Shown here: positions 42,858-49,931 of the stretch, one piece after another
Numbering within the stretch: position 1 is the first letter of the stretch
How the letters are laid out: each line of letters begins with the position of its first letter
Program-made: the position numbers and the translations under genes
NCBI GenBank assembly: GCA_027485145.1
Contig: JAIXRO010000034.1
Coordinates: 1 to 64,000, forward strand
Source of the DNA: Hyphomonadaceae bacterium
GTDB lineage: Bacteria > Pseudomonadota > Alphaproteobacteria > Caulobacterales > Hyphomonadaceae
Direction: 5' to 3'
DNA length: 64,000 bases
The notes under the pieces: generated by a model
Told to the model about the DNA's origin: nothing
Databases searched by the model: none
Seen by the model: only the letters and a program-made list of their open reading frames with translations

Positions 42858-43227
42858 CGATCATGTCCAGCTCTTCGGGGGTGGCGGCGGCGAGGATGCG
42901 GTCGATGTCGGACACGGCGACCTGCGGCGCTTCGGGCGGGGTTTCCTGCACGACGACCTTCTCGTTCCAGCCCATGCGGCGGGTGGCGATCAGCTTCAGC
43001 GCCCAGGGCTCCTCCTTGTCAATCGCGGCCTTGACGATCTTTGAGCCGACCGCGGCGAAGATGTTTACCGCGCCCCGGTCGAGGGCGTCCTTGTACTGAG
43101 CATGCTCGTGCAACGTCTTCGTGCTGATCTTGAGGTACGTCGCGATATCGATCTGGCGCAGCCCCGCCGCCACGAGGGCGCGGATCGCATTGGCCGTTGC
43201 ATCGTTGGGGTGGACGTTGTCGCTCAT
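42805..43227 (-). CDS. Terminase small subunit-like protein
   Basis: 140 residues: an N-terminal helix-turn-helix (LVAAGLRQIDIATYLKISTK), then a helical core with FAAVGSKIVKAAIDKEEPWA, the pattern of small terminases that recognise the packaging site. Directly upstream of the large subunit, as expected. Confidence 0.8.
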   Translation of the reverse strand: MSDNVHPNDATANAIRALVAAGLRQIDIATYLKISTKTLHEHAQYKDALDRGAVNIFAAVGSKIVKAAIDKEEPWALKLIATRRMGWNEKVVVQETPPEAPQVAVSDIDRILAAATPEELDMIDALLARTAAVEPGADAG

Positions 43228-44528
43228 GCCGCCTCAGCCGGCGCCCGCACGAGTTCGGCCTTGCGGCCCGTGAACGCTTCCCAGCGCGCGACGATAACGT
43301 CGCAGTAAGCCGGGCTCAGCTCGAGGCCGAGGCAGACGCGCCCTTCCTGCTCCGCCGCGATGATCGATGTGCCGGAGCCAAGGAACGGGTCGTAGACCAG
43401 ATCGCCGGGCTTCGAATTGTTGCGCATCGGGCGCGCCATGCACTCGACCGGCTTCTGGGTGGAGTGGCCCGTCTCGGACTTCTGAGGCTTCGGGATGGCC
43501 CAGACCGTGGACTCCTTGCGGCTCCCCTGCCAGTGGCCGGTCGCCCCCCCCCCTGAGCGGACGACATACCAGGCGGGCTCGTGCTGCCAGTGGTAATGGC
43601 CCCGGCCGATGGCGATGGTCCCTTTGTCCCAGATGATGTTGGCCCGGCGCTCAAAGCCGCAGGCTTCCAGCGACGACAGGACTTCAGCGGTCCTCATCGA
43701 GGCGTGCCAGACATAGGCCACATCGCCCTTGAATAGCGCCCATGCCTCGCGCCAGTCGGCACGATCATCGTTGAGCACCTTTCCGACGGCCCGGGCGCCA
43801 ACGACTGAGCCATCGGCCCTTGTGATCCCATTGCGAAACTCGGCGTCATACTCGACGCCATAAGGCGGGTCCGTCACCATCAGATGCGGCTTCGCCCCGG
43901 CCAGCACGCGGGCCACGTCCGCCGCGTTCGTGGAGTCCCCGCAGGTCAGCCGGTGCGGCCCGAGCAGCCAGACGTCGCCCGGCTTCGTGACCGGATCGGC
44001 CGGCGCCTCGGGGACCTCCTCCGGATCGCCGGTCGCATCGAGGCGGGCGAGGAAGCGCACCTCGGACAGGTCAAAGCCGACGAGCTCCAGATCGAAGTCC
44101 AGATCCGCGAGGGCCTTCAGTTCAGCGTTCAGGACTTCCTCGTCCCATCCCGCGTTCAGGGCCAGCTTGTTATCGGCCAACACATAGGCCCGTTTCTGCG
44201 CCTCGGTCAGGCCCTCGATGGCGATGCACGGCACCTCGGCCAGCCCCATCTTCGAAGCCGCCATGACGCGCCCGTGGCCGGCAAGGATCAGGCCGGCCTC
44301 GTCGATCAGGACAGGGTTCGTCCAGCCCCACTCGTGGATCGAGGCGATGATCTGCTCGACCTGGGCGTCGCTATGGGTCCGGGCGTTGCGGTCATACGGC
44401 TTCAGCGCGGCGACGGGGCGGACCACAACAGGACGGCCGCCGATCCCGTGCGCGAGAACGTTTTCCGGGTTGGCAGGCGCTGCGGGCGATTGCGCCGCGT
44501 GTTCCGAGGTGGCGGGAAAATCGGTCAT
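43224..44528 (-). CDS. ParB/Srx-domain DNA methyltransferase (N6-adenine or N4-cytosine, beta class)
   Basis: 434 residues. Residues 35-120 are a ParB-like nuclease fold (ILAGHGRVMAASKMGL). Residues 185-430 are an amino-methyltransferase with catalytic DPPY (220-223) preceding the AdoMet motif DPFLGSGT (about 380-387), the beta-class order. The coding strand holds a run of ten G at codons 326-329, between the two motifs. It probably protects phage DNA from restriction or marks packaging sites. Confidence 0.88.
   Translation of the reverse strand: MTDFPATSEHAAQSPAAPANPENVLAHGIGGRPVVVRPVAALKPYDRNARTHSDAQVEQIIASIHEWGWTNPVLIDEAGLILAGHGRVMAASKMGLAEVPCIAIEGLTEAQKRAYVLADNKLALNAGWDEEVLNAELKALADLDFDLELVGFDLSEVRFLARLDATGDPEEVPEAPADPVTKPGDVWLLGPHRLTCGDSTNAADVARVLAGAKPHLMVTDPPYGVEYDAEFRNGITRADGSVVGARAVGKVLNDDRADWREAWALFKGDVAYVWHASMRTAEVLSSLEACGFERRANIIWDKGTIAIGRGHYHWQHEPAWYVVRSGGGATGHWQGSRKESTVWAIPKPQKSETGHSTQKPVECMARPMRNNSKPGDLVYDPFLGSGTSIIAAEQEGRVCLGLELSPAYCDVIVARWEAFTGRKAELVRAPAEAA
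43544..43553 (-). repeat. Ten-G homopolymer inside the methyltransferase gene
   Basis: Ten C on the plus strand, ten G in the coding direction, encoding Gly-Gly-Gly and the first base of Ala. Slippage of one base would truncate the enzyme before its AdoMet-binding motif. In this sequence the tract is in frame and the gene is open. Confidence 0.9.
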
Positions 44529-44770: not shown

Positions 44771-44982
44771 GATTTGCCTTTCTTTGGCGGCGCAGGCCGG
44801 GGGTTCGCCAGAACATATGCCTGCAGGTGGTGGTAGAGGGGGTGATCGGCGAGATCGACGCGGACGCGGTCGTCCATGCCGATGAGCGTCTTATCGAGCG
44901 CGACGGTGACGCATTCGATGCGACCCGGCACATCGGCCGTGTTGGCCGACACCATGTATTGAAGGCCCTGCTTCTTCTTCAT
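44767..44982 (-). CDS. Small phage protein of unknown function
   Basis: 71 residues, MKKKQGLQYMVSANTADVP with a basic Pro-rich end (PRPAPPKKGKS). No family recognised. It overlaps the anti-defence gene downstream and the DnaA-like gene upstream by 4 bases each, which supports translation from the ATG at 44982. Confidence 0.6.
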   Translation of the reverse strand: MKKKQGLQYMVSANTADVPGRIECVTVALDKTLIGMDDRVRVDLADHPLYHHLQAYVLANPRPAPPKKGKS

Positions 44983-45809
44983 GCCGCTGCAATCCTCTGA
45001 GGTTGATCGTCGGCCAGCTCCTGCGCCTTGGCGAGGACCGAGCAGGCCCGGTCGATCCATGTGTCCACGTCCGGGTCTTCCCGGAGTTCCTCGATCACGC
45101 CGCGGGCGTGTTCCACCGTGGTCCGGTCCCGGCCGATGACACGGGCCACTCGAGTCGCGTTCCAGCCATTGTTGATCGAGAGCGCGTAGACCGTCAGCTG
45201 GCGGGCCAGCGTGGCGCGGGCCGAGAGTCGGGTCGGCGCCATGATCTCTTCGACCGACGAATTGCACAGCGAGGCCATGACATGGATCACGCGCCAGGCA
45301 TGGGCCATGTCGGCGACGTCGGGCTCGGGCGGGGGTTCTGCCGGCGCGTCCGGGATGGCCGAGGCATCGCCCGGGGCGCGGGCCGGGAAGCGAAGGGCGC
45401 GGAGGTCTTCCCGCTTCATGCCGGGATGGATCACGCCCTTGCGGATCGCGGTGTCGAGCGTGTCGGCATCGAGGCGGACCATTTCGGCGAGGATGGACCA
45501 TCGGGGCGGCAAATCCGCAGCCCGCTCAGGATTTGACAGGATCGGGTGCGACGCGATCTGCATCAGGCGGAGCGCGACGTTGACCCCAAACGGCAGGCGG
45601 GCCTCGACGAGCGATTCCCATTCGCCGTGCCCGGTCTGGGACTTCAGCTCGATCAGCAGGTTTCCGGTGCGGACGATCCCGGAGACCATGCCCGACCATG
45701 TCCGGGTGATCTCGGTCAGGAGACCATCGACGGACGCGGTGTGGGCCGCGTCCGCGATGCGGTCGAGGCTGGACACTGCCTGCAGGGGTTCATCATTGGC
45801 GGCCATCAT
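44979..45809 (-). CDS. Phage protein with DUF3102-like N terminus and DnaA domain IV-like C terminus
   Basis: 276 residues. The N-terminal half contains GNLLIELKSQTGHGEWESLV and LRLMQIASHP, similar to DUF3102 proteins. The C-terminal part has IMAPTRLSARATLARQLTVY followed by GRDRTTVEHARGVIE (from residue 226), matching the DnaA box-binding signature GRDHTTVLHA. No AAA+ domain lies between. It could bind DnaA boxes in the host or phage origin and steer replication. Confidence 0.7.
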   Translation of the reverse strand: MMAANDEPLQAVSSLDRIADAAHTASVDGLLTEITRTWSGMVSGIVRTGNLLIELKSQTGHGEWESLVEARLPFGVNVALRLMQIASHPILSNPERAADLPPRWSILAEMVRLDADTLDTAIRKGVIHPGMKREDLRALRFPARAPGDASAIPDAPAEPPPEPDVADMAHAWRVIHVMASLCNSSVEEIMAPTRLSARATLARQLTVYALSINNGWNATRVARVIGRDRTTVEHARGVIEELREDPDVDTWIDRACSVLAKAQELADDQPQRIAAA

Positions 45810-46335: not shown

Positions 46336-46685
46336 AGCTTCATCCCTCCCAGCGGCTTCGTCGTCTCGAAATGAAATTCGCAGACCCCGAGCAGCTCGCC
46401 GCAGGCCGTTCGCTTCTTCGGGTCGCCGCAAGTCTCGAAGCCCTTCCGGACGTCGGGGCGCTGGCACGTCTCGGGCGGGGCCTTGCGGCGGAACCGGTTG
46501 ACCGTGATCCCGTCGCTCATGCGGGGTGCCGGATCGTTGGCGCGGCTCAAGACCTGGCTGACGTTCGAGCTACTGCATCCCAGCCGGCGCGCGATCTCGC
46601 GTTGACCGATGCCCATCCGGTCCAGCTCGCGGATCTCGACCGCCATGTTCCGCGGCCCGGTCTGTTTCGGGTCGGGGCGGCTCAT
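46332..46685 (-). CDS. Phage HTH DNA-binding protein
   Basis: 117 residues. A helix-turn-helix lies at IRELDRMGIGQREIARRLGC followed by SSNVSQVLSRA, then a C-terminal region with five spaced cysteines (ETCQRP, FETCGD, TACGELLGVCEFHF), probably a zinc site. It resembles the small regulators found beside GcrA homologues in alphaproteobacterial phages. Its stop overlaps the GcrA-like start. Confidence 0.65.
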   Translation of the reverse strand: MSRPDPKQTGPRNMAVEIRELDRMGIGQREIARRLGCSSSNVSQVLSRANDPAPRMSDGITVNRFRRKAPPETCQRPDVRKGFETCGDPKKRTACGELLGVCEFHFETTKPLGGMKL

Positions 46686-47017
46686 GCGTCCACCGTTTCG
46701 CGGGTCGTGTTGACCAGGCCGACCAGTTCGGCCAGCGCGGTGCGGGTTTCAAGGCGCTGAGGGCGGCGGAAGCGGTAGCACGCCCAAAAGTCGTATTTCA
46801 GGGTGTGCCGCGAGTAATCGAATGCCAGAAACGTCAGATCGAGATGAGCGCCGACCGAGATGGTGTCCTCGCAAATGGTAATGCTGGTGCTTCCATGTTT
46901 GAAGATGACCGTGCCGCCGGGCACCAAGGCTTGCACGACATAGCTCCGGCCCCGGACGATCGCGCCGTCGCAACCGCTGTCATCAACGCAGATCACGCGC
47001 TCCCCGACTTCGAACAT
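46682..47017 (-). CDS. Phage protein of unknown function
   Basis: 111 residues. The beta-rich first half starts MFEVGERVICVDDSG and reads like a small SH3-like barrel (VRGRSYVVQALVPGG). No family recognised with confidence. The ATG at 47017 follows GGGAGG and shares a base with the preceding stop. Confidence 0.6.
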   Translation of the reverse strand: MFEVGERVICVDDSGCDGAIVRGRSYVVQALVPGGTVIFKHGSTSITICEDTISVGAHLDLTFLAFDYSRHTLKYDFWACYRFRRPQRLETRTALAELVGLVNTTRETVDA

Positions 47018-47235
47018 CAGAAGCCTCCCGGCGCACAAGGCACACGTGAAAAAGCGGCAATCGCAAATGCGACACATGCGATCGCCGAGGAAATTGAGAT
47101 CAGCAGGATCCGGCCTCGGTATGCGTCGACGACTTTCAAAGCCTCCCGCACGCCATCGGTATCGGGAAAGGAGCCGTATTCTGTGACGATCCGCCCGGGC
47201 GGTGTCTCTGGGTATCCGCAATTCTTGCAAACCAT
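47017..47235 (-). CDS. Small membrane protein with N-terminal zinc-knuckle-like CxxC
   Basis: 72 residues: MVCKNCGYPE at the N terminus and one transmembrane helix near residues 43-63 (ILLISISSAIACVAFAIAAF). It overlaps both neighbours by one base (TGATG). No known family. It may sit in the inner membrane with the CxxC end in the cytoplasm. Confidence 0.55.
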   Translation of the reverse strand: MVCKNCGYPETPPGRIVTEYGSFPDTDGVREALKVVDAYRGRILLISISSAIACVAFAIAAFSRVPCAPGGF

Positions 47236-48245
47236 CAGGCCGCCTCCTCGCTGGATTGATCGGATGCCGGCGCCGCGAGCGGCTTGAGGCCGTACTTCGC
47301 GTAGAGCTCGGCGGGGTAGCGGCCGGGCGGCGCCTGGGTCGGCTTAAGCGGCCAGCCGTCGCGGGCGCCGTGCCATTCGCCGGTGCGCGAGAACCGCCAG
47401 AACGCGGCGTCGAGGCGCTCGGCCATCGCAGCGGTGTTCACCTCCGCGCCGGTCGGGGCCGCCTTGGCGAGCAGGCCGGGCGGGCCGATGAAGGCGTCGA
47501 ACCGGTGCTGGCCGATCCAGCGGTGGACGCCCATCGCGTAGCGCCCACCCTCGCGGTGCACGTCGCTGGATTTCAGATACCGGCGATAGGCGTCGAGCAA
47601 GGCCGGGGCGGTGATGTCGGCCCGCTTCTTCAGCACCCGCTCGACCGCGGCCTGCAAATCCTTCCGGCTGGATTTCGTCCGGGTGCCCTGCGGCCCTGCG
47701 TTCCACAGCTCTTCCAAAATCACTCCGAGCGGCCCGCCGCGCGTCTCGCGCGGAATGGATGATTCAGTGGATAGTTCTATGGAGTTATTCGTCGGACACT
47801 GTGCCCGGGGGTCTTGGACAGAATGTCCGGGGGTTTTGGACACAGTGTCCGGGGGTTCGCCCTTACCAGCGGACAGATTGTCCGGCGGTGCGAGACCGCT
47901 TTCACAAAGGAGATCGGGCTCACTTTCGAGTTCGCTTTCGATCGATGGCACGGCGTCAGGGAGGGCCATGATGGCGCGCAGATTGATCCGCCAGACGATC
48001 ACGGCCCCGCCCCGGAATTTCTTCTCCCCTGCCCGGCTGATGACGCCGGCGGTCTCAAGTTCTTGCCAAGTGCGCCTCACGGTACGTTCGTGGATCTCGC
48101 AGCGCAGCCCGAGCCGTTCCGCCGAGGGCCATGCGAAGGGCTCGGCCACCTCGTTGACGTGGAACGCCATCATCTGGATAACTTGCTTTCGGGTCGGGCT
48201 GCCAAAAGCCTTCCGATGGATCAGGCCCATCACTTCGAAGTTCAT
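47235..48245 (-). CDS. Phage replication initiator-like protein (winged helix; gene contains iterons)
   Basis: 336 residues. Residues 10-90 form a winged helix (RKQVIQMMAFHVNEVAEPFA, HERTVRRTWQELETAGVISR) like the N termini of lambda O-type initiators. Residues 110-160 are a low-complexity linker encoded by the iteron array at 47793-47891. The C-terminal part may contact the host helicase loader. The origin inside the initiator gene is the lambda O layout. Confidence 0.7.
   Translation of the reverse strand: MNFEVMGLIHRKAFGSPTRKQVIQMMAFHVNEVAEPFAWPSAERLGLRCEIHERTVRRTWQELETAGVISRAGEKKFRGGAVIVWRINLRAIMALPDAVPSIESELESEPDLLCESGLAPPDNLSAGKGEPPDTVSKTPGHSVQDPRAQCPTNNSIELSTESSIPRETRGGPLGVILEELWNAGPQGTRTKSSRKDLQAAVERVLKKRADITAPALLDAYRRYLKSSDVHREGGRYAMGVHRWIGQHRFDAFIGPPGLLAKAAPTGAEVNTAAMAERLDAAFWRFSRTGEWHGARDGWPLKPTQAPPGRYPAELYAKYGLKPLAAPASDQSSEEAA
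47793..47891. repeat. Iteron array, probable phage replication origin
   Basis: Four copies of a 22-bp unit with core GGACA-N3-TGTCC followed by GGGGGT. Cores start at 47794, 47816, 47838 and 47871, spaced 22, 22 and 33 bases, which keeps them on the same helix face or half-turn related. Copies 2 and 3 are the best; copy 1 has TGCCC and copy 4 has GGCGG. The adjacent stretch 47755-47792 is visibly AT-rich and could be the unwinding element. Confidence 0.75.
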
Positions 48246-48787
48246 GCTGCGCTCCGGATGACAGTGACGCGGGCCAGTGTGAAAGGCCGGAGCGGGTGCC
48301 CGCCCCATTCCTCGGGCGTCTTGGCGCCCTTCGAGATGTTGCAGGGCGCGCATGCGAGGGCGAGGTTGGAGGGCGCGTCACCCCCTCCCCTCGATGCCGG
48401 CAGGATGTGATCGATATGGAACGGGCCGGATTCGCAGTCGCAATACACGCAGGTCCGGTCGCGTTGACTGATTTGATACCGGAGGAACTGAGGGATTTTA
48501 GGTGAAGCCTTCCGCCTCCCTAGAAAGGTTTCGAACCATGGAAAGGTGACCTGCCAGCGGTCTGTCTCTGCGTCGAATGCCGCCTCGGTCAGAAAGCCCA
48601 CCGTGATCAGATCGGCGATAAGCACGGCAGCACTCACCGCGCAGCTGAACCGTGCGATGGCATCACCGTCAAATGCGCAGGACTCGATGGTCGTGTCGGC
48701 TGAGTCCGCCATGAAGATGGCGGCCAACTTTGAGGCCGGGTGAATGCCCTCAAGCTCGAAGGCCTCGACAAGTCTCGCTGCGCTCAT
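48242..48787 (-). CDS. HNH endonuclease
   Basis: 181 residues. The HNH motif is complete at the C terminus: CVYCDCESGPFHIDHILPAS, then GGGDAPSNLALACAPCNISK, with two CxxC pairs for zinc. The N-terminal 90 residues look like a separate helical domain seen in replication-associated phage proteins. It could be a free-standing homing enzyme or aid packaging or replication. It overlaps the initiator start by 4 bases. Confidence 0.82.
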   Translation of the reverse strand: MSAARLVEAFELEGIHPASKLAAIFMADSADTTIESCAFDGDAIARFSCAVSAAVLIADLITVGFLTEAAFDAETDRWQVTFPWFETFLGRRKASPKIPQFLRYQISQRDRTCVYCDCESGPFHIDHILPASRGGGDAPSNLALACAPCNISKGAKTPEEWGGHPLRPFTLARVTVIRSAA

Positions 48788-49107
48788 GACGATACCTCCG
48801 GAAAAAGCACCACCAGCGCCTCGGCGCGAAACGCCCAGCCGGCCGGTGTGACAGTGATGCGGACCTTGGCGTGATAGCCGCGGCCCTCGTGTTCGATGGT
48901 GATGAAGCCCCAGGCCTCCATGTCGGCGAGGCTGCGCCAGAGCGTCTTGCGATCCGTCCCGCAGCGCTCCGCGAGGCGGCTCATGCCATCGGTGTAGACG
49001 CCATCGACGCCGGCCCGCACGATCTCGGCAAAGGCCGCGAGGAAGTTGCTCCGCGTCCGCAGCCGGACGGCCTGCAGGCAGTCGATGTAGGGCGATCCGT
49101 CAGCCAT
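48784..49107 (-). CDS. Phage winged-helix protein
   Basis: 107 residues with a winged helix: VYTDGMSRLAERCGTDRKTL, then RSLADMEAWGFITIEHEGRG. A phage regulator or replication helper. The ATG at 49107 shares one base with the stop of the ParB-like gene upstream. Confidence 0.65.
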   Translation of the reverse strand: MADGSPYIDCLQAVRLRTRSNFLAAFAEIVRAGVDGVYTDGMSRLAERCGTDRKTLWRSLADMEAWGFITIEHEGRGYHAKVRITVTPAGWAFRAEALVVLFPEVSS

Positions 49108-49931
49108 TACGCGGCCCCCGCCATGTTCGCCCGGATCACGCCGGCGAGAACCTTGTGGATCGGCAGGCCCTGCGCCTTCGCGCGCACCGAGGCCATGCCG
49201 ATCAGGTTGTCCTGCCCGTGACGCCGCAGAGCCTGGACAATGGCGCCGTCCTCGACCGGAATGCCCCCGCCCCAGATGATCGCCTCGATCGCCTTCAGCG
49301 TGCCGCCCTTGATCGGCGCAAGGTCTGCCGCGACGCCGATGGCAACGGCCCGCTTGACATAGGCAGGCCCTCCCCGCTTCGCGAGCGCACGCAGCTGGCC
49401 GACGCATATCAGGTCGCCGGGCCTGTAGATCCCGTGCGCGGGCGGGGCCTTGAGGATTCGGCCGCCGGCAGCGGCGACGCCTTGTGCCACCTCGACCGAC
49501 AATTCGTCCTGCGCCGCGAGTTCGGCTTGGAAGACCTGCATCGGGGTCATCGCCAGCCGATCCCGGTTCAGGCCGACGAAGTCTGCGGCGCGCTCGGCAA
49601 CCGACTTGCCCCGCGTGATCAGGCAGGGCAGCTCAGCGATCCCGCCGTGCGTCGCCGCCGCAATGGCCGTGTGCTGACCATCGATCACCTCATAGACGCC
49701 GGGCCCGGTCTCGACGACGGACAGGGCCTTCACCCTGCCCCAATCGAAGGCGGCAACCATCTTGCGGATCATGCGGTGCGACTTCTCGGAAAGGCCGCGC
49801 TGGTACTCGTCGTTGATCACGAGCGACGACAGCGGGAGCCATGTCAGGTCCGGCTTGTCGCCCAGGGCCGATGGTGTGACGTCGGGCGCCTTGATCGGCG
49901 CGACGGGGCGGAGGAGCGGGGTGTCAGTCAT
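49107..49931 (-). CDS. ParB-like nuclease-fold protein
   Basis: 274 residues. The ParB box is visible in LSSLVINDEYQRGLSEKSHR and VYEVIDGQHTAIAA, as in the DUF6551 group common in phages. The rest is helical (SVEVAQGVAAAGGRILKAPP). It may bind or process DNA during replication. It overlaps the MT-A70 gene by 4 bases, so the two may act together on phage DNA. Confidence 0.75.
   Translation of the reverse strand: MTDTPLLRPVAPIKAPDVTPSALGDKPDLTWLPLSSLVINDEYQRGLSEKSHRMIRKMVAAFDWGRVKALSVVETGPGVYEVIDGQHTAIAAATHGGIAELPCLITRGKSVAERAADFVGLNRDRLAMTPMQVFQAELAAQDELSVEVAQGVAAAGGRILKAPPAHGIYRPGDLICVGQLRALAKRGGPAYVKRAVAIGVAADLAPIKGGTLKAIEAIIWGGGIPVEDGAIVQALRRHGQDNLIGMASVRAKAQGLPIHKVLAGVIRANMAGAA

What the first reader, a model, noticed from the sequence alone, without database searches (positions are those of the whole stretch)
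47793..47891. Iteron array with palindromic cores inside the initiator gene: a phage origin
Four 22-bp units (core GGACA-N3-TGTCC then GGGGGT) spaced 22, 22 and 33 bases fall in the part of the gene that codes for a low-complexity linker, next to an AT-rich stretch. This is the lambda O plan with unrelated sequences and a different, palindromic iteron, so it looks like an undescribed origin type.
Basis: partly seen in the sequence, partly recalled or inferred. Interest (0 to 1): 0.7.

Follow-up and report, generated by a model that had tools for sequence, protein, structure and literature searches.

The report
Phage initiator carrying its own binding sites
A bacterial virus appears to keep its DNA replication start inside the gene of its replication starter protein; the layout is known from phage lambda, but this particular binding site recurs in many distantly related phage genes and tends to go with two amino acids of the protein's DNA-reading helix.

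Summary
The array is real: four 22-bp units (starts 47794, 47816, 47838, 47871) in the linker-coding part of gene 47235-48245(-), beside that gene's most AT-rich 40 bp. The protein matches PHROG 'replication initiation' and 'O-like' families, but its wHTH is not detectably homologous to lambda O. The plan is known (lambda O, SPP1 gp38, RepA_N plasmids), and lambda's iteron is an inverted repeat too. Best reading: an intragenic origin bound by its own initiator; binding and replication are inferred.

What looks new: GGACA-N3-TGTCC is not private. Of 35 representatives of these, 34 have R58 and 34 have R/K54 in the recognition helix. A rule written down before testing (R/K54 plus R58 predicts two or more GACA-N3-TGTC sites in the same gene) was met by 9 of 28 rule-positive and 0 of 56 rule-negative protein-selected initiators. 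A natural swap of the wHTH-plus-iteron block agrees. The code is partial: three rule-positive genes clearly carry other palindromes, and L142 has GGACA sites without R58.

The parts
47235..48245 (-). initiator gene, 336 aa: wHTH, disordered linker, C-terminal part
   Evidence: (phrog_270 4.4e-15, phrog_391 1.1e-11)
47967..48245 (-). wHTH domain, residues 1-93
   Evidence: 10-residue block pLDDT 83-98; coordinates computed from residues
48051..48089 (-). recognition helix, residues 53-65, with R54 and R58
47794..47815 (+). iteron, core GGACACTGTGCCC (1 mismatch)
47816..47837 (+). iteron, core GGACAGAATGTCC
47838..47859 (+). iteron, core GGACACAGTGTCC
47871..47892 (+). iteron, core GGACAGATTGTCC
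47753..47792 (.). AT-rich stretch, candidate unwinding element, on the 3' side of the array in coding orientation
47238..47735 (-). C-terminal part, residues 171-336, proposed to recruit the helicase (inference)
   Evidence: phrog_270 match reaches residue 251; helices, moderate to low confidence

Best explanation
A phage replication origin inside its own initiator gene. A dimer of the initiator's N-terminal wHTH binds each palindrome GGACA-N3-TGTCC; sites 22, 22 and 33 bp apart put the dimers on roughly the same face of the DNA and build a nucleoprotein complex. The adjacent AT-rich stretch (47753-47792) melts, and the C-terminal part brings in the helicase, probably the host's. The linker is the part of the protein that can tolerate carrying the sites. 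Shown here: array, place, reading-frame independence, AT-rich flank, initiator family, association of recognition helix with site across genes, and one natural block swap. Inferred: binding, melting, helicase recruitment and replication.
For: PHROG initiator families for the window protein and for 22 of 27 diverse GGACA-type proteins (phrog_270). Array right after the wHTH in 34 arrays examined, median distance 0.7 residues; spacings cluster at 21-23 (53 of 88) and 33-35 (12 of 88); spacings modulo 3 are 30/26/32; copies in more than one frame in 25 of 34; the 3' flank is AT-richer than the 5' flank in 25 of 34 (p 2.4e-4). Rule test: 9 of 28 against 0 of 56, 7 of 18 against 0 of 41 after clustering at 45% identity. 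Natural swap L329/L330. The lambda yardstick has the same layout: iterons code residues 117-145 of 299.
Against: No binding or replication data. No close relative of the window protein was found. No clear helicase or loader gene among the 30 window proteins scanned against PHROGs. 54 of the 120 paired GGACA stretches are not in a frame that the wHTH model hits; several of these look like repressor operators. A second wHTH protein of the window with the same helix signature could also bind.
Confidence: 0.85

Rival explanations
1. The array is a regulatory operator: the second wHTH protein (48784-49407) or another phage regulator binds it to control the gene or to block the initiator.
For: The second wHTH frame (48787-49632, E 2.7e-5) has K and R at the positions of residues 54 and 58. 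Several viral contigs carry GGACA-N3-TGTCC pairs between genes, overlapping TTGAC, in operator-like positions (by eye).
Against: Four copies inside the coding region far from the gene start, AT-rich flank on one side, and the same place in many initiator genes.
Confidence: 0.08
2. A partition or host-factor site that happens to lie in this gene, for instance a site for the ParB-like protein 49107-49931.
For: A ParB-like gene lies nearby (phrog_1033 2.5e-15); palindromic repeats are typical of such sites (recalled).
Against: The site goes with the initiator's own recognition helix and changes together with the wHTH in a natural swap.
Confidence: 0.04
3. A low-complexity protein repeat without DNA function.
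For: It lies in a disordered linker, and one hit elsewhere (L140) is a protein repeat of that kind.
Against: The units fall in all three frames and so code different peptides; in the 34 arrays the spacings do not favour multiples of three.
Confidence: 0.02

Closest known systems
Phage lambda O protein and ori-lambda
   Same: Iterons in the middle of the initiator gene (residues 117-145 of 299), inverted-repeat iterons, AT-rich DNA on the 3' side.
   Different: wHTH not detectably homologous to lambda O (hmmsearch domain E 0.19 for one target, hhalign probability 0.9%); iteron sequence and half-site spacing differ; no P-like loader gene recognised next to it.
SPP1 gp38 and oriL
   Same: Origin-binding protein with direct repeats inside its own gene and an AT-rich unwinding element (PMC6316719 passages).
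   Different: SPP1 has its own loader and helicase (same passages); sequences not compared here.
RepA_N plasmids (pSK41) and the chimeric pPR9 initiator
   Same: N-terminal wHTH binds four Rep boxes centrally in the rep gene; the origin codes a dispensable linker. In pPR9 a block of about 500 bp (N-terminal domain plus origin) is replaced by a phage-like HTH_36 type and still replicates (PMC5703833 passages).
   Different: The window protein has no RepA_N match in Pfam at E 0.1. The pPR9 rep linker has repeats but no GACA-N3/4/5-TGTC sites.
PHROG 270 and 391 initiators
   Same: The window protein and most diverse GGACA-type proteins match.
   Different: These families are defined by sequence; the shared iteron and the helix-site relation are not part of the annotation shown to me.
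repABC plasmid RepC
   Same: Origin inside the initiator gene with an A+T-rich region (PMC3155836 passages); weak RP-C match.
   Different: The p42d repC origin has no iterons (same passages); the match is below the curated cut-off (15.1 against 24.4 bits).

Membership tests
lambda O-plan intragenic origin | iteron array in the linker-coding part of the initiator gene | tested here: met
   lambda yardstick
lambda O-plan intragenic origin | AT-rich stretch beside the iterons | tested here: met
lambda O-plan intragenic origin | iterons are inverted repeats | tested here: met
   lambda: PMC7466680 passages
lambda O protein family proper | DNA-binding domain homologous to lambda O | tested here: not met
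lambda O-plan intragenic origin | helicase loader gene next to the initiator | tested here: inconclusive
   no PHROG match for 46682-47230 and 47017-47235; 30 window proteins scanned, not all ORFs
lambda O-plan intragenic origin | initiator binds the iterons and replication starts there | not testable with these tools
   needs the bench
PHROG replication initiation families (270, 391) | profile match | tested here: met
   4.4e-15 and 1.1e-11
RepA_N initiators | RepA_N domain | tested here: not met
   not among Pfam matches up to E 0.1
RepABC RepC | RP-C profile over cut-off | tested here: not met
   15.1 bits, cut-off 24.4; NCBIfam RepABC_RepC 11.7 bits, cut-off 150

The most novel reading that the evidence does not exclude
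Phage wHTH initiators carry their own DNA-binding sites in their genes, and the sites follow the recognition helix. GACA-N3-TGTC with R/K54 and R58 is the commonest class that I met; wHTH plus iterons moves between phages as one cassette. If so, origin specificity and incompatibility of many phages could be read from sequence, each gene recording its own protein-DNA pair.
Probability: 0.5. Interest if true: 0.72.

Novelty: new variant of a known kind. Interest (0 to 1): 0.5.

Why it matters
It would also give a sequence-level account of how phages and plasmids escape origin incompatibility, by swapping the wHTH-plus-iteron block.

Tried and rejected
Close relatives of the window protein: none in viral contigs, none in phages at 1e-5, none in genome contigs. 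One other weak match each, at E 1e-5 or better, in 105 family genomes, 398 order genomes and 385 class genomes. Two plasmid records matched at 1e-3. At E 0.5, 108 phage records matched, weakly; I fetched 10 of these plus one of the two plasmids.

Private iteron: rejected. Paired GGACA in 385 class genomes: 6 with a match, own included. Of the other five, L140 is a protein repeat, L142 lies in a wHTH-like frame without R58, and L143-L145 I could not place.

Control palindromes are not pure background: 8 of the 13 GACAG-N3-CTGTC loci also lie in frames that the wHTH model hits.

C-terminal-domain selection (best 80 of 272 kept): 64 of 80 had no wHTH by my model. 1 of 80 (L167) has an exact GGACA pair; it carries the query at 100% identity, and my frame choice missed it. 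Arrays beat all 40 shuffles in 12 of 16 wHTH genes and also in 21 of 64 others, many of those simple repeats by eye. ST64B relatives: 80 of 582 kept, nearly all one type; I analysed 5.

Fold search: no PDB match at E 0.001; generic wHTH folds only; 4pql at rank 24, whose identity as pSK41 RepA is recalled. A literal text search for the motif found 0 papers.

Full report
What is there. It holds phage genes: portal, terminase large subunit, head protease, tape measure, RecT-like protein, exonuclease VIII and an S24-type repressor. Gene 47235-48245 on the minus strand codes 336 residues and matches PHROG replication-initiation families (phrog_270 4.4e-15, phrog_391 'O-like' 1.1e-11); Pfam HTH_36 is below its cut-off (18.9 against 25 bits). 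The model shows a wHTH in residues 1-93, a recognition helix at 53-65 and low confidence over the linker (mean pLDDT 65, so only the wHTH is trusted). The array is as described. Its four units fall in all three frames, which points to selection on the DNA. The AT-rich stretch 47753-47792 follows the array in coding orientation, as in lambda.

Relatives of the protein. Among 15 genes (window plus 14 weak relatives), an array in or near the linker beats all 60 codon shuffles in 11; L006 (1 of 60), L015 (3), L007 (33) and L018 (44) do not. Each has its own sequence, often a palindrome: GTGMA-N5-TTCAC in ST64B (L010) and Ayreon (L016), GGAAC-N1-GTTCC in Bcep176 (L013), GGCCA-N3-TGGCC in L008, GTGAC-N5-GTCAC in Vibrio phage D77 (L019). 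So the O plan is general in this group of initiators, and the iteron varies.

The GGACA palindrome is widely shared. GACAG-N3-CTGTC gave 13 and AGGCA-N3-TGCCT gave 6, without reaching a limit. These controls are not pure background: 8 of the 13 lie in frames hit by the wHTH model. A wHTH model grown from the window gene and its 14 relatives hit a frame over the array in 66 of 120 loci. In 6 of the other 54 a hit frame lies elsewhere in the locus. Of the rest some look like operator pairs upstream of small regulator genes (by eye), a few may be initiators that the model missed (L027, L113, L138, by eye), and many I could not place. An independent library agrees: 22 of 27 diverse members match phrog_270 and 19 match HTH_36. 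These 26 proteins are 14-21% identical to the window protein over the alignment, whose only invariant column is R58 of the recognition helix.

Geometry. In 34 arrays (33 representatives plus the window; L054 and L116 left out because their arrays are not next to the wHTH) the array starts at a median of 0.7 residues from the end of the wHTH match. Spacings peak at 21-23 (53 of 88) and 33-35 (12 of 88), show no preference for multiples of three (30, 26, 32), and 25 of 34 arrays use more than one frame. The 45 bases on the 3' side are AT-richer than those on the 5' side in 25 of 34 (mean GC 0.41 against 0.51, Wilcoxon p 2.4e-4).

Recognition helix and site. After clustering the 66 at 60% identity, 34 of 35 have R58 and 34 of 35 have R or K at 54; the exceptions are L116 and L054. 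These loci were chosen by the motif, so I wrote a rule into the notebook and tested it on initiators chosen by protein family. The set was 60 loci returned plus 60 of the further rows, picked by hand. 109 of 120 had a wHTH by my model and 85 remained below 70% identity. Without the window itself, 9 of 28 rule-positive and 0 of 56 rule-negative genes had two or more GACA-N3-TGTC sites with at most one mismatch (Fisher 1.9e-5); the shuffle rate was about 0.3%. R58 alone gave 0 of 15, R/K54 alone 0 of 26, neither 0 of 15. The other 11 permutations of GACA gave 0-2 in rule-positive and 0-2 in the other genes. After single-linkage clustering at 45% the count is 7 of 18 against 0 of 41, and at 40% it is 3 of 10 against 0 of 29 (p 0.013). 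Allowing N4 and N5 afterwards gives 11 of 28 (post hoc).

Results against the code. 19 of 28 rule-positive genes lack the predicted sites. Some have no clear array, but L423 (GGGAC-N6-GTCCC), L444 and L446 (TCGGTAACCGA) clearly have other palindromes, and L357 and L363 borderline ones. L142, from the class search, has a GGACA pair in a wHTH-like frame whose helix, aligned by eye, has N and K at 54 and 58. L333, with A58, has the GTGAA-type site of N58 proteins. So 54 and 58 matter but do not decide alone. Shared ancestry is reduced by clustering, not removed. In all, 38 of 85 genes have a palindromic array that beats 19 of 19 shuffles, about 4 being expected.

A natural swap. L329 and L330 are 50-63% identical in DNA over the first 300 alignment columns (wHTH plus iterons), 81% over the next 60 and 95-100% after that. 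The helix changes from RTVTRS to RTIINA, and the iterons from GGACA-N3-TGTCC (one exact, one with a mismatch) to GTGAATTTAATTCAC. ST64B, also N58, has the GTGMA-N5-TTCAC type. The L330 array is short: my scorer did not find it significant, so this rests on one clear palindrome. The published pPR9 initiator is a parallel case: an N-terminal domain plus origin block replaced by an HTH_36 type, functional and compatible with pSK41 (PMC5703833 passages).

Literature. The plan is known for lambda and Stx phages (PMC7466680, PMC3349717), SPP1 (PMC6316719) and RepA_N plasmids (PMC5703833), all seen as passages. HTH_36 Rep proteins with iteron-like repeats are described for Paracoccus plasmids (PMC3832669 passages). 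No paper in the held library has the motif written in any of five forms, and the listings showed no title on a shared phage iteron or a helix-site code. The library lacks most subscription journals, so this is weak evidence of novelty.

Mechanism and odds. I hold the origin reading at 0.85 and the general recognition-code reading at 0.5. No helicase or loader stood out among 30 window proteins scanned against PHROGs, so recruitment of the host helicase is inference. A second wHTH protein of the window (48784-49407, frame E 2.7e-5) has K and R at the two key positions and could compete for the same sites.

Noticed in passing
window 48784-49407(-): Second wHTH protein about 0.5 kb upstream of the initiator gene, with K and R at the positions of residues 54 and 58; it might bind the same array.
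   Followed up: partly
L029, L067, L079, L094, L099, L114, L127, L135: GGACA-N3-TGTCC pairs (mostly 23 apart), several overlapping TTGAC, between genes near small regulator-like frames: the same palindrome perhaps used as a repressor operator (by eye).
   Followed up: partly
window 44979-45809(-): Phage protein with a DnaA domain IV-like match below cut-off (Bac_DnaA_C 6.8e-5).
   Followed up: no
window 43224-44528(-), 49107-49931(-): ParB-like domain fused to an N6/N4 DNA methylase, and a separate ParB-like protein.
   Followed up: no
window arrays and L020, L045, L049, L168, L171, L172: Runs of 4 or more C on the coding strand (or G on the other) next to the half-site in many GC-rich arrays, whatever the half-site; not counted.
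   Followed up: no
L023, L090, L104, L109, L126, L128: GGACA arrays outside the wHTH frame, with a wHTH frame elsewhere in the same locus: perhaps origins beside rather than inside the initiator gene.
   Followed up: no
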